NCBI GenBank assembly: GCA_003695725.1
Contig: RFHX01000169.1
Span: forward strand, 1 to 5,661
Source: J061 sp003695725 [NCBI: Candidatus Schekmanbacteria bacterium]
GTDB lineage: Bacteria; Schekmanbacteria; GWA2-38-11
DNA: 5,661 nt
Direction: 5' to 3'
A program made the translations under genes and the position numbers. Shown in pieces: positions 37-5,228 of this stretch. Every line of letters begins with the position of its first letter. Within the stretch, counting starts at the first letter, position 1. The notes under the pieces were generated by a model. The model ran no database searches, was not told the origin of the DNA, and saw only the letters and a program-made list of their open reading frames with translations.

Positions 37-165
37 ATGAATAAAGATAATAGATATATATTATTTCTTATTCTATTATTTGCCTTAAATTCATTTTATC
101 GCAGTTCGATAAATGAAAAAGAAAATTTGTTTCTTTTATTAAGTTGTTTTGAAAACTATAAATAG
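37..165 (+). CDS. Possible 42-residue hydrophobic leader peptide upstream of the cytochrome
   Basis: A short open frame starts at ATG 37 and ends at TAG 163-165. A purine-rich AGAGGA at 24-29 lies seven bases before the ATG and could serve as ribosome binding site. In-frame stops at 4-6 and 16-18 show it is not the tail of a longer gene. The predicted peptide has a charged start (MNKDNR), a hydrophobic stretch at about residues 7-17 (YILFLILLFAL), a polar middle and a second short hydrophobic patch (LFLLLSCF). Its stop codon overlaps the first bases of the AGGAGGA of the cytochrome gene, so a terminating ribosome would sit on that site; translational coupling or leader control is therefore conceivable. 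I recognise no family. The region is very AT-rich and the frame is short, so it could be chance. It also contains a strong inverted repeat, which may be the real functional element. Confidence 0.35.
   Translation: MNKDNRYILFLILLFALNSFYRSSINEKENLFLLLSCFENYK
90..117. promoter_or_regulatory. Imperfect inverted repeat (operator or 5' leader hairpin) upstream of the cytochrome
   Basis: Seven bases at 95-101 (TTTATCG) pair perfectly with 107-113 (CGATAAA) around a five-base centre, CAGTT. Beyond a single bulged T at 94 the pairing continues for four more bases (90-93 with 114-117), giving 11 pairs in total. No T-tract follows on either strand, so it does not look like a terminator. It lies 46 bases before the cytochrome ribosome binding site. 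It could be a dimeric regulator operator or an mRNA hairpin in the 5' leader. The choice depends on the transcription start, which I cannot place. Confidence 0.5.
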
Positions 166-170
166 GAGGA
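164..170 (+). promoter_or_regulatory. Ribosome binding site of the cytochrome gene, overlapping the leader-frame stop
   Basis: AGGAGGA is a near-perfect Shine-Dalgarno sequence six bases before ATG 177, and it fixes the cytochrome start. Its first two bases are also the last two of the TAG that ends the upstream 42-codon frame. Confidence 0.85.
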
Positions 171-176
171 ATTGCC

Positions 177-1208
177 ATGAAGAGGTTAATTGTCTTGTTG
201 CTTTCAGTAATGCTGGTAATCGGATTGGGCGCTGTAGTTTACGCAGGAGACTACCATGATGGTGCAAGTCTTGTATGTAATCAGTGCCACACAATGCATG
301 CAAGCACAGCTCACGATTATGGATCAACAAGTGGGGGATATAGTTATACTCCTGCCGAACATTTGTTAAAAGCAGGTGGCTCAACAAATGACCTATGTCT
401 CTCATGCCATGACAATGGTGTTGGTCCTGATGTGATGGGAACTAATGATACCGGTTCAACTCAAAGGTCTGCCGGTGCTCTCAATAAAGTTGGCGGTACC
501 GGTCCCTATGCAGAATATATGGGACATACGATAGGCAGCACCGATACAGCCCCCGGCGGAACTTGGAGCAACAGCAATGGATTATCCTGTGCTGATTGTC
601 ATCAACATCATGGTGCTGATTTTAATGTAGGAGATGTTGGCGGTAATACCAATATTGACAATTACAGAAATCTCTCTCCTGTTGCAGGTGGTGCAACACC
701 TACATTAGGTGTAAGTTATGCAGCAGGTACAAATGACTTGTCAAGAGACATTTTCGAAGCAGGCGTAGGTGTGAGAACGATTGCAGGTGTCAACCTTAAC
801 GAACCTAATTCGAGCAAATCCGGCATTGCTGAATTTTGCAAAAAATGTCATACCAATCTCCATGGTGATGTTGGAGGCGCTGAAATTGGCGGAAGTATTG
901 CAAATGGAGCTTTTATTCGCCATCCTGCGGCAGGTGTTGATATAGGCGACATTGGAGGCGGACATTCAAGTCTTGACCAGCTGAATTCCATCAACAATCC
1001 TGTAAGAGTTATGGACCCTGATGGTTCATGGACGGCAGGTGCTTATGATGGAAATGAAACACCAACCTGTTTAACCTGCCATAGAGCTCATGGAAATGGG
1101 AACAGCTTTGGACTTATATATCAGGCAGGAACTTCAACAATCACAGAAGACGGTGATGGTACAAATGTAAGAGACCTTTGCAACAACTGCCATATTCAAG
1201 GCAGCTAA
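177..1208 (+). CDS. Secreted OmcS-like hexaheme c-type cytochrome
   Basis: The 343-residue product is an exported electron-transfer protein. A Sec signal peptide (MKR, hydrophobic core about 4-20, probable cleavage after V-Y-A23) precedes six CxxCH heme-attachment motifs at residues 34-38, 74-78, 138-142, 221-225, 298-302 and 335-339. Extra histidines suited to bis-His ligation occur at 41 (CHTMH), 117 (GHT), 144/145 (CHQHHG), 229 (CHTNLHG), 249 (IRHP) and 305 (CHRAHG). Order, contexts and the closing LCNNCH resemble, from memory, Geobacter OmcS (about 430 residues, six hemes), the subunit of extracellular cytochrome filaments; this protein is shorter. The stretches between hemes are rich in Gly, Asn and Thr, and a GD[V/I]GG motif occurs at 152, 230 and 257. 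The start is set by AGGAGGA six bases upstream. The gene stands alone between its leader and a strong terminator, with no porin or maturation genes beside it. Multiheme identity is certain. OmcS kinship is likely. Filament formation and extracellular location are inferred; a periplasmic shuttle is the alternative. Confidence 0.95.
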   Translation: MKRLIVLLLSVMLVIGLGAVVYAGDYHDGASLVCNQCHTMHASTAHDYGSTSGGYSYTPAEHLLKAGGSTNDLCLSCHDNGVGPDVMGTNDTGSTQRSAGALNKVGGTGPYAEYMGHTIGSTDTAPGGTWSNSNGLSCADCHQHHGADFNVGDVGGNTNIDNYRNLSPVAGGATPTLGVSYAAGTNDLSRDIFEAGVGVRTIAGVNLNEPNSSKSGIAEFCKKCHTNLHGDVGGAEIGGSIANGAFIRHPAAGVDIGDIGGGHSSLDQLNSINNPVRVMDPDGSWTAGAYDGNETPTCLTCHRAHGNGNSFGLIYQAGTSTITEDGDGTNVRDLCNNCHIQGS

Positions 1209-1224
1209 AGTGAAGGACTTTCAG

Positions 1225-1253
1225 AAAGGAGGGGGAAACCCCTCCTTTTTTTT
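1225..1253 (+). terminator. Rho-independent terminator of the cytochrome gene
   Basis: GGAGGGG (1228-1234) pairs perfectly with CCCCTCC (1239-1245) around a GAAA tetraloop. AAA (1225-1227) can extend the stem against the first Ts, and eight Ts run from 1246 to 1253. It begins 17 bases after the cytochrome stop, so the cytochrome transcript should end here and the downstream genes need their own promoter. Confidence 0.93.
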
Positions 1254-3191: not shown

Positions 3192-5228
3192 ATGAAAAAT
3201 AATACATTCTGCTCAAAAGAAATAATAAATGTCGCCTTTATATTGTCAGTCATCTGCGGGCTTCTTGATTCACTATTGGAGGCACCATCTGAATTCTACT
3301 CAATGAGTTTTTTGCTCTTTCCAACAATTATTACATCCATCTGTTATTTTATCTCTTATTCCCTTCTTCTTTTATGCTTCAATATGTTTCTAAATAAAAA
3401 AGACATACAAAAACTTCCTGCCGCTATATCCCTCGGGATTTTGATTGAAATAATTTTTCTCAAATATTCACCTCTCCCTAACTACCTTTCTTTCATAATA
3501 GGGACCGGATTGTGGCAAAAAATTGCAATTTTTTTTCTCTGCCCATTAGTTGTAGTTGTTTTAACTTATTATTCAGCTCTAAAAATCGTAGCCAATGAAA
3601 AGCTTTTATCGCTATGCACTAAAAGTATCTATATAATCACTGTAATTCTTCTGGAAACTTTAATCTTTCTTTGGCTTTTGCGTTACAATGATTATTATAA
3701 TCTTATAAAGTATTGTTTTTATCTATTTGTTATCATCATCACCATTTCATTTTTCCTGAAAAGAAACGAAGGATTTCTAAAAAAGACCATATATTTTATA
3801 TGTCTTGCTTATATCTTTGGCACTTTCATCTCTTTCATAGGTGAAAACATTCATAGATATTACAACTCAGCTTCATTCAACAATCATAAAATAAAGCATA
3901 TAATTCTGGTTATAGATGACACTCTCAGGGCTGATGCACTATCCTGTTATAATAGAAAAGCAAAAGTGAAAACTCCAAATATTGACAATTTTTCAAAAGA
4001 CTCTTTTCTATTTGAGAATGCCATTTCATCTGCATCGTGGACTTTACCTGCTATAGCTTCAATAATGACCGGATTTCCTCCCTCTGTGCATGTTGTAACA
4101 ACTGTCAACAGAAAACTTTCAGATAATTTTCAAACTCTTGCAGAAAGATTGCAAAAGGCGGGGTACTTAACATCAGCTTTAGGATATAATGCTGTTCTTA
4201 ACCGCTCTATCAATATTTCACAAGGATTTAGCGAATACAATTTTTTCCCTAAATGGTATGGATTCTCCTTTGGGAAAGATGTTTTAAAGAAATTATTTTC
4301 CCAATTATTCATCTCAAAACCATCAACCGAAAAATTGACCGATATGGCTATAAATTGGCTTAAATCAAACAAAGATAAGGATTTTTTTCTTTGGCTTCAT
4401 TATTTCGACCCTCACCTTCCTTATTCTCCTCCACACAAATATCTTACCGCTAAAAAGAAACCGCCGAGTATGGATGAATCATTAATAAGCCGCGATCCTA
4501 TACGGTTTGGGAAATTTAAACCAAACCAAAAAGAAAAAGAATGGATAAAAACCCTTTATAAAGCTGAAGTCTCTTATGTAGATGATAACTTTGGAAGATT
4601 AATTAATGCTTTGAAGAATTTAAACCTATATGACAATTCACTGATTATCTTCACTAGCGACCATGGAGAAGAATTTTGGGAACATAACGGATTTGAACAT
4701 GGCCATACAGTTTACAATGAACTTTTAAAAGTTCCTCTCTTAATTAAAATGCCTCATTCAATTTCCCAAAAAATCCTTGATATTCCTGTTTCCACCTCTT
4801 ATCTAATGCCTACGATATTGGACCAATGCGGAATAAAATATGAAAAAGAAAATTTTTTCAAATCACTTTCTCCTTTACTCTCATCAAATATCACCTCGTA
4901 CAATAAGGAGCCAATAATATCTATTAATGTATTCAGTCCTCTCAGAGTCCAACGAGCAATTACCTTTAATGGGTTTAAATATATCTCTGTTAAAGTAGAA
5001 AAAAATAAGCCAACAGAAGAACTTTATAATTTGGCAGATGACCCTCTAGAAAAACATTCTATTGCAGATATTTTCCCTGAAAAAGTTGAGGAAGCCAAAA
5101 GAATTTTTACCAGATTCGATAAAACTTCTAAAGAACTAAGAGAAAAATACAATGTTATAAAACGAGAAGAAATTTCGCTTAACAAAAATGTAATCCGTGA
5201 ATTGAAGACTTTAGGCTACATCCATTAA
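3192..5228 (+). CDS. Membrane-anchored sulfatase-fold (alkaline phosphatase superfamily) hydrolase/transferase
   Basis: The 678-residue protein has an N-terminal membrane region with about seven hydrophobic segments (roughly 11-29, 38-66, 76-90, 112-130, 145-164, 172-189, 198-216). A catalytic domain follows from about 235, probably outside the cytoplasmic membrane. The sulfatase fold is marked by IILVIDDTLRADALSCYN (metal ligands D242/D243), SWTLPAIASIMTG (283-295), WLHYFDPHLPYSPP (401-414), FTSDHGEEF (487-495, metal ligands D490/H491) and EHGHTVYNELLKVPLLI (502-518). LYNLADDPLE (611-620) and a final LKTLGYI are also usual for this group. The residue in the nucleophile position is T284, within T-L-P-A-I. 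It is not the Cys or Ser of C/S-x-P-x-R that is matured to formylglycine, so phospho- or phosphoethanolamine-type transfer on envelope lipids or glycans is as likely as sulfate ester hydrolysis. The ATG has no good ribosome binding site. The next internal Met (38) would remove the first membrane segment, so I keep this start. Confidence 0.88.
   Translation: MKNNTFCSKEIINVAFILSVICGLLDSLLEAPSEFYSMSFLLFPTIITSICYFISYSLLLLCFNMFLNKKDIQKLPAAISLGILIEIIFLKYSPLPNYLSFIIGTGLWQKIAIFFLCPLVVVVLTYYSALKIVANEKLLSLCTKSIYIITVILLETLIFLWLLRYNDYYNLIKYCFYLFVIIITISFFLKRNEGFLKKTIYFICLAYIFGTFISFIGENIHRYYNSASFNNHKIKHIILVIDDTLRADALSCYNRKAKVKTPNIDNFSKDSFLFENAISSASWTLPAIASIMTGFPPSVHVVTTVNRKLSDNFQTLAERLQKAGYLTSALGYNAVLNRSINISQGFSEYNFFPKWYGFSFGKDVLKKLFSQLFISKPSTEKLTDMAINWLKSNKDKDFFLWLHYFDPHLPYSPPHKYLTAKKKPPSMDESLISRDPIRFGKFKPNQKEKEWIKTLYKAEVSYVDDNFGRLINALKNLNLYDNSLIIFTSDHGEEFWEHNGFEHGHTVYNELLKVPLLIKMPHSISQKILDIPVSTSYLMPTILDQCGIKYEKENFFKSLSPLLSSNITSYNKEPIISINVFSPLRVQRAITFNGFKYISVKVEKNKPTEELYNLADDPLEKHSIADIFPEKVEEAKRIFTRFDKTSKELREKYNVIKREEISLNKNVIRELKTLGYIH

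What the first reader, a model, noticed from the sequence alone, without database searches (positions are those of the whole stretch)
177..1208. Compact OmcS-like hexaheme cytochrome: candidate nanowire subunit
Seen: six CxxCH motifs with a signal peptide. The local contexts CHTMH, APGGT before heme 3, CHTNLH then RHP after heme 4, CLTCHRAH and a terminal LCNNCH follow the same order as in Geobacter OmcS as I recall it. Known: OmcS polymerises into micrometre-long conductive filaments with an unbroken heme chain. Inference: this protein, about 90 residues shorter, could build the same type of filament in another lineage.
Basis: partly seen in the sequence, partly recalled or inferred. Interest (0 to 1): 0.72.

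Follow-up and report, generated by a model that had tools for sequence, protein, structure and literature searches.

The report
Compact OmcS-type nanowire cytochrome
This gene encodes a shortened relative of the Geobacter protein OmcS, which stacks into heme-filled wires outside the cell; it keeps the heme-binding histidines that OmcS appears to need, including the one thought to link neighbouring subunits, so it is a good candidate for a wire-forming protein in a little-known bacterial lineage, although no filament has been seen.

Summary
In detail: window 177-1208 encodes a 343-aa exported hexaheme cytochrome with OmcS's motif order. A four-sequence family profile hits one solved protein well, OmcS (E 4.5e-12; next 0.039). 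Two low-confidence AlphaFold models each gave one PDB candidate, OmcS (Z 8.6 and 9.7, rmsd about 5). Of OmcS's 17 His, the six CxxCH His plus five distal His occur in 11 of 11 OmcS-type and 23 of 23 compact proteins; a sixth distal His (H16, the inter-subunit ligand as I recall) in 8 of 11 and 23 of 23.

The same genome holds an 88%-identical copy in a cluster that matches a Geobacter-type omcS-companion (osc) region in gene order, though split over unjoined contigs and with half the barrel gene unmatched. A same-family genome has the orthologous regulators upstream of canonical OmcS genes instead. The compact type is about 25% identical to OmcS, 87 residues shorter, and found in MAGs labelled as eight phyla.

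Family and candidacy are supported; polymerisation is inferred, not shown. New variant of a known kind.

The parts
177..1208 (+). compact OmcS-type hexaheme c-type cytochrome, 343 aa
   Evidence: ORF; six CxxCH; OmcS the only significant PDB match of the family profile; own-genome copy 88% identical over the mature part
164..169 (+). AGGAGG ribosome-binding site
   Evidence: read directly
177..245 (+). likely signal peptide (residues 1-23)
   Evidence: hydrophobic run ending VYA, read directly; no prediction program was run
246..1205 (+). mature chain, 320 residues
   Evidence: N-terminal GDYH aligns with OmcS residues 1-2 (FH)
276..290 (+). heme 1 motif CNQCH
396..410 (+). heme 2 motif CLSCH
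588..602 (+). heme 3 motif CADCH
837..851 (+). heme 4 motif CKKCH
1068..1082 (+). heme 5 motif CLTCH
1179..1193 (+). heme 6 motif CNNCH
255..257 (+). inferred distal His ligand, mature residue 4 (OmcS H2)
   Evidence: 11/11 OmcS-type, 23/23 compact
297..299 (+). inferred inter-subunit His ligand, mature residue 18 (OmcS H16)
   Evidence: 8/11 OmcS-type, 23/23 compact; its role as donor to the neighbour's heme 5 is recalled
525..527 (+). inferred distal His ligand, mature residue 94 (OmcS H110)
   Evidence: 11/11, 23/23
609..611 (+). inferred distal His ligand, mature residue 122 (OmcS H147)
   Evidence: 11/11, 23/23
921..923 (+). inferred distal His ligand, mature residue 226 (OmcS H257, the RHP motif)
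   Evidence: 11/11, 23/23
1089..1091 (+). inferred distal His ligand, mature residue 282 (OmcS H335)
   Evidence: 11/11, 23/23
1223..1250 (+). intrinsic-terminator-like hairpin just after the gene
   Evidence: 12-pair stem with T tail; 3 overlapping sites in the scan against 1.1 expected

Best explanation
The protein is an exported hexaheme c-type cytochrome of the OmcS superfamily, in a compact clade distinct from Geobacter OmcS. It most likely works as OmcS does. Six bis-His hemes lie in sequence order along the subunit. Eleven ligands come from the same chain, and His18 of one subunit caps heme 5 of the next. Head-to-tail polymerisation then makes an extracellular wire with an unbroken heme row for electron delivery to solid or cellular acceptors. 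Folding and export would use the osc-like machinery encoded elsewhere in the genome (PPIase, barrel-like protein, two CsgG/LpoB-like lipoproteins, propeller, 25- and 16-heme proteins). Shown: homology, His conservation, the companion genes and their order, and strong purifying selection on the duplicate. Inferred: which His pairs with which heme, polymerisation, surface location and function. The window copy is a stand-alone duplicate of the first cytochrome gene of that cluster, probably a second isoform or a differently regulated copy.
For: Profile to OmcS E 4.5e-12, no other PDB chain better than 0.039. hhalign 99.7%, E 4.1e-26. OmcS is the one PDB candidate for two template-free models: Z 8.6, rmsd 5.0, 241 residues; Z 9.7, rmsd 5.1, 254 residues; Foldseek E 4.1e-4 for the second. 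All 12 inferred ligand His are in the window and in 23 of 23 compact rows. Companion genes match a Geobacter-type osc region (G127) in the same order: propeller 31% (E 3e-36), lipoprotein 34% (4e-33), two-domain lipoprotein 26% (9e-25), PPIase 24% (3e-25), 25-heme 36% (8e-122), 16-heme 36% (5e-75); barrel N-terminal part 5.8e-5 to G084's barrel. Pfam supports PPIC rotamase, LpoB/CsgG/GNA1162 and propeller domains. The same-family genome G001 has the orthologous kinase (65%), sigma54-type regulator (73%) and response regulator (40%) upstream of canonical OmcS (51%), OscD and OscG. dN 0.096, dS 2.23 between the two own-genome copies. Roles of OscH (folding), OscE/F/G (secretion) and OscD (morphology): PMC13194489, passages, citing Shen et al. 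2025, which I did not read.
Against: The window gene is not in the cluster; its neighbours are an FMN reductase, a methyltransferase and a sulfatase. Identity to OmcS is 26.8% and a single-sequence search misses OmcS. The chain lacks 87 residues, 35 of them between hemes 5 and 6, which lie at a subunit end in OmcS (PMC7096707, passage), so the OmcS contact surface cannot be fully kept. Models: pLDDT 59.5 and 52.2; Foldseek had no hit at E <= 10 for the first, and for the second the TM-scores were only 0.39 and 0.32 with rmsd 11.3. Some compact proteins fall to chance level on the OmcS HMM (L026 6.5, L017 13.1 bits). The loci were found by N-terminal patterns that include His4 and end one residue before His18, so the 23 of 23 for those two is biased upward. 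The C-terminal half of the barrel gene (C248) had no match to the G127/G084 proteins at E <= 0.01, and C15 and C248 are not joined. Osc-like neighbours were found in 13 of 21 compact loci, and no negative control set of loci was run. Whether OmcS filaments matter physiologically is disputed (PMC11077965, start of abstract; PMC13194489, passages).
Confidence: 0.6

Rival explanations
1. It is an outer-surface or periplasmic hexaheme cytochrome with the OmcS fold that stays monomeric or makes short oligomers, passing electrons between other cytochromes rather than building a wire.
For: Stand-alone gene without osc genes beside it. Loop between hemes 5 and 6 shortened by 35 residues. Three OmcS paralogs in Geobacter-type genomes keep eleven of the His but lack H16, so members of the superfamily need not polymerise.
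Against: The inter-subunit His is kept in 23 of 23 compact proteins (N-terminal counts are biased, see above), and the 88% copy sits in an osc-like cluster, which is expected if secretion and assembly are needed.
Confidence: 0.27
2. It is an accessory subunit: a cap, tip or minor partner in a wire made mainly of the cluster's other cytochromes (the 88% copy, a heptaheme, a second hexaheme).
For: The cluster holds three OmcS-superfamily genes of different lineages, and the Geobacter osc operon also holds several OmcS paralogs (PMC13194489, passages). A separate locus allows separate regulation.
Against: No inferred ligand differs between the window protein and the cluster copy; the only His/Cys difference is residue 121.
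Confidence: 0.1
3. It is an ordinary soluble multiheme cytochrome that shares only the CxxCH spacing with OmcS by chance.
For: Pfam assigns only generic multiheme families (Paired_CXXCH_1, Mtrc-MtrF_II-IV_dom, Cytochrome_C7).
Against: Shuffles with CxxCH fixed reach at most 14.2 bits against 38.4. Proteins with eight or more CxxCH reach at most 13.7, L039_3 (32.5, family-like N-terminus) apart. Five distal His shared in 34 of 34 rows.
Confidence: 0.03

Closest known systems
OmcS of Geobacter sulfurreducens (PDB 6EF8, 6NEF)
   Same: Six CxxCH in the same order; all 12 inferred ligand His; APGGT, CHTxxH, RHP and CLxCHRAH motifs; likely export; osc-like companion genes in the genome
   Different: About 27% identity, 320 against 407 residues, spacing shortened between hemes 2-3 (29 residues), 3-4 (16), 4-5 (12) and 5-6 (35); filament not shown; window copy stands alone
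osc (omcS companion) operon of Geobacter
   Same: The own-genome cluster has propeller, barrel-like, two lipoprotein, PPIase, 25-heme and 16-heme genes in the order of the Geobacter-type genome G127; giving G127's genes Osc names is my assignment
   Different: Cytochromes are compact hexaheme, heptaheme and hexaheme types plus an extra 8-heme protein; the cluster is split between C332/C15 and C248 and that join is not shown
OmcE, OmcZ, PcECN and AvECN cytochrome filaments
   Same: Multiheme wires; OmcE also has a heme coordinated by a His of the adjacent subunit (PMC12954529, passages)
   Different: Four or eight hemes for OmcE and OmcZ; none of them appears in the PDB searches

Membership tests
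OmcS superfamily (by sequence) | significant profile match to OmcS, exceeding other multiheme proteins | tested here: met
OmcS superfamily (by sequence) | six CxxCH in order, and the 11 own-chain ligand His | tested here: met
   which His are ligands is inferred from conservation plus the 11+1 count in PMC6584659
OmcS-type nanowire subunit | His that a neighbouring subunit donates to heme 5 (H16 of OmcS, recalled) | tested here: met
   His18 present in the window and in 23 of 23 compact rows; presence of the residue only, not the bond
OmcS-type nanowire subunit | same fold as OmcS | tested here: inconclusive
   OmcS the only PDB candidate, Z 8.6 and 9.7, rmsd 5.0 and 5.1, but low-confidence models and low TM-scores
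OmcS-type nanowire subunit | continuous heme chain across subunits; filament on cells | not testable with these tools
   no heme-bound or multimer modelling, no microscopy
osc-operon cytochrome | osc-type assembly genes in the genome | tested here: met
   the barrel is matched only in its N-terminal part
osc-operon cytochrome | gene lies inside the osc operon | tested here: not met
   the window gene is on its own contig C169 without osc genes; its 88% copy is in the cluster
canonical OmcS orthologue | groups inside the OmcS clade in a tree | tested here: not met
   window is in a separate 23-row clade, 100/99; OmcS clade 100/100

The most novel reading that the evidence does not exclude
There is a second, compact kind of OmcS-superfamily wire, with about 320 residues for six hemes instead of 407, spread over at least eight phyla outside the Desulfuromonadia. 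In the window's own family it replaced canonical OmcS in place, under the same regulators and with the same export machinery. Wires may be built from a mix of hexaheme and heptaheme subunits.
Probability: 0.4. Interest if true: 0.75.

Novelty: new variant of a known kind. Interest (0 to 1): 0.6.

Why it matters
OmcS homologues are already reported as widespread (PMC10954620, passages; PMC12954529, passages). The survey I could see used E < 1e-5 and coverage above 75%, and a single-sequence search does not connect this clade to OmcS, so that survey may have missed it; Baquero et al. 2023, which may have covered it, I could not read. If these proteins polymerise, the range of heme wires extends further into uncultured phyla, and the shorter chain shows how little protein sheath an OmcS-type heme stack needs. 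The pair G000/G001, with the same regulators but different cytochrome types, is a natural swap that can be tested.

Tried and rejected
Single-sequence PDB search: only a weak DnaJ match (1exk_A, E 0.019), rejected as cysteine-spacing coincidence. A second model from 27 rows was poorer (pLDDT 52.2, pTM 0.56), yet gave the better OmcS match. Viral contigs: of 26 stretches that matched a pattern none encodes a relative. Rfam at gathering thresholds: nothing in the window. Neighbouring contigs of the window: its first 150 bases match only its own contig, and its ends do not overlap the three held contig stretches. Sigma54 sites: 7 matches with up to 3 mismatches in the window against 5.4 expected, none of them in bases 1-176. 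Papers: the listings of searches showed none that ties this compact clade to nanowires; only 18, 78, 79 and 102 were aimed at that, and I opened few of the papers. Wang 2019 (PMC6720112) is not held; Shen et al. 2025 and Baquero et al. 2023 I know only from recall and from citing papers. The kinds of protein given to OscD to OscH (propeller, channel-like, prolyl isomerase) are recalled from Shen et al.; one search gives only their roles.

Rows left out of the 23-row His count: L028 (cut by contig end), L032 (4 CxxCH in frame), L034 (no His in the 14 residues before the first CxxCH), the own heptaheme, and the more distant loci L037-L058. Twelve of the 44 loci have no His in those 14 residues (one of them, L057, lacks its start), so the ligand pattern is not universal in the wider set. 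The 23 rows of that count are not the 23 rows of the tree clade: c433 and L033 fall just outside that clade.

Full report
What is there. The window is the whole contig C169 of a 2.77-Mb draft genome (374 contigs, 97.84% complete). The gene at 177-1208 encodes 343 residues with a ribosome-binding site, a signal-peptide-like start, six CxxCH motifs, and a terminator-like hairpin at 1223-1250. Downstream are an FMN-reductase-like protein, a methyltransferase and a sulfatase-family protein. Pfam alone gives generic multiheme matches to the cytochrome.

Relation to OmcS. A single-sequence search of the PDB misses OmcS. A profile of four relatives finds it at E 4.5e-12, with nothing else better than 0.039. 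Profile-profile comparison of 23 compact with 11 OmcS-type proteins gives 99.7% probability and E 4.1e-26. With every CxxCH fixed and all other residues shuffled, 200 controls reach at most 14.2 bits against 38.4 for the window. Among held ORFs with eight or more CxxCH, one 14-heme protein with a family-like N-terminus (L039_3) reaches 32.5 bits and the rest at most 13.7. Three compact relatives score near or below the shuffle maximum themselves (L027 14.7, L017 13.1, L026 6.5), so for them the link to OmcS runs through the family. Two template-free AlphaFold models, from 25 and 27 rows, have low confidence (pLDDT 59.5 and 52.2; pTM 0.66 and 0.56). In each case the one PDB chain that Foldseek passed on was OmcS: Z 8.6, rmsd 5.0, 241 residues, and Z 9.7, rmsd 5.1, 254 residues.

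Ligands. OmcS has 12 His ligands, 11 from its own chain and one from the neighbour on heme 5 (PMC6584659, parts 1 and 2 of 3 read). Its 17 His were followed through 34 aligned proteins. The six CxxCH His and H2, H110, H147, H257 and H335 are present in 11 of 11 OmcS-type and 23 of 23 compact proteins, which makes eleven. H16 is present in 8 of 11 and 23 of 23; the three without it are paralogs from the OmcS regions of G127 and G084, with Q, P or S there. H247 is I or L in four close OmcS relatives, so it is unlikely to be an essential ligand. By elimination H16 is the twelfth, which agrees with my recollection of Wang et al. 2019 (not read). The window has all twelve. A caution: the compact loci were found with two N-terminal patterns, one containing His4 and one ending one residue before His18, so the counts at these two positions are biased upward; the other positions are not touched by this.

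Assembly genes. The window gene has a copy in the same genome, 83% identical at C332 and 88% at C15. The two pieces overlap by exactly 99 bases, so I read them as one gene. Around it lie, in order, a kinase-like protein with one CxxCH, a sigma54-type regulator, a response regulator (these three named by eye), the 6-heme copy, a 7-heme, a 6-heme and an 8-heme cytochrome, a propeller protein, and the start of a barrel-like protein. Contig C248 continues the pattern: the end of a barrel-like protein, two CsgG/LpoB-like lipoproteins, a PPIase with two rotamase domains, a 25-heme and a 16-heme protein. The exceptions: the 8-heme gene is extra; the barrel matches weakly in its N-terminal part (5.8e-5 to G084, 4.6e-4 to G127), its C-terminal part on C248 has no match at E <= 0.01, and Pfam recognises neither; and no overlap joins C15 to C248. 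In Geobacter the companions are proposed to act in OmcS folding (OscH), secretion (OscE, F, G) and morphology (OscD) (PMC13194489, passages). Giving these names to G127's genes is my assignment.

A natural swap. In G001, a genome of the same family, orthologues of the three regulators (65%, 73% and 40%) lie directly upstream of an NHL-type propeller gene, two canonical OmcS genes (51% and 50% to PDB OmcS), and OscD- and OscG-like genes. G003, of the same order, also has canonical OmcS (68% and 60% to G001's); G002, of the same order, has none. In the window's draft genome no canonical OmcS was found, and G001 has no compact protein at E <= 1e-20, only a 29-residue C-terminal fragment 62% identical to the window protein. 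The simplest reading is that the compact type took the place of OmcS in this lineage and does its job. That is inference.

Spread. A scan of genome contigs gave 44 loci; 21 of them I class as the compact clade. By their record titles they come from Latescibacterota, Eisenbacteria, Zixibacteria, Krumholzibacteriota, Armatimonadota, Planctomycetota, Ignavibacteriota, Nitrospinota and unplaced MAGs. In 386 genomes drawn around the window's, 11 match at E <= 1e-20, the window's own included. A tree puts the window and its copy in a 23-row clade (100/99), apart from OmcS (100/100). Sequence matches to osc proteins other than NHL propellers lie beside 13 of the 21 compact genes: lipoproteins at 8, multihemes with 14 or more CxxCH at 8, PPIase at 1, OscD-type propeller at 1, barrel at 0. 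Several loci are cut by contig ends, and no negative control set of loci was run.

The duplicate. Between the window and cluster copies dN is 0.096 and dS 2.23 (near saturation), so the duplication is old and both copies have been under strong purifying selection. DNA similarity covers only 243-1201, not the signal peptide or flanks. The single His/Cys difference is residue 121, not an inferred ligand. The gene's third-position GC (0.306) fits its neighbours (0.281-0.300), so nothing points to recent transfer.

Verdict. Family, His conservation, companion genes and selection are shown. Polymerisation, ligand pairing and surface location are inferred by analogy. The protein fails as a canonical OmcS orthologue but passes as a member of the wider superfamily, and it probably works like OmcS. 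The main doubts are the stand-alone locus, the 35-residue loss between hemes 5 and 6, and the low-confidence models.

Noticed in passing
L076 (G001:C15:246000-265999) and own C332/C15: Orthologous kinase, sigma54-type regulator and response regulator stand upstream of canonical OmcS in one genome and of compact cytochromes in another genome of the same family.
   Followed up: yes
L014 (G001:C3 near 246068): A 29-residue C-terminal fragment 62% identical to the window cytochrome, followed by a stop two residues before the window protein ends, looks like the remnant of a lost compact gene.
   Followed up: partly
L073 and L074: Three OmcS paralogs near Geobacter-type osc genes keep eleven ligand His but have lost H16 (Q, P, S); they could be end caps of a wire.
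   Followed up: no
L004 25-1197 (own C15, 390-aa ORF); L019, L026, L030, L037: A heptaheme clade (100/99) with an extra CxxCH between hemes 2 and 3 accompanies the compact hexaheme in several phyla.
   Followed up: partly
L023, L026, L027, L036, L047, L077: Proteins with 40-42 CxxCH lie beside these cytochromes and match the multiheme proteins of the osc region.
   Followed up: no
L015, L016, L024, L033: Armatimonadota-type loci follow the hexaheme gene(s) with a protein of about 690-700 aa that looks like a propeller in L015; in L015 and L024 a 1463-1578-aa protein with 9 CxxCH comes next.
   Followed up: no
L006 1946-1961 (-): A sigma54-like site with one mismatch lies just upstream of the response-regulator gene of the osc-like cluster; the total number of sites is as expected by chance.
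   Followed up: no
window 37-165: A 42-aa ORF with a hydrophobic start lies directly upstream of the cytochrome gene; seen by eye, no relatives were sought.
   Followed up: no
window 3192-5228: A sulfatase-family protein whose N-terminal 200 residues look like several membrane helices (by eye).
   Followed up: no
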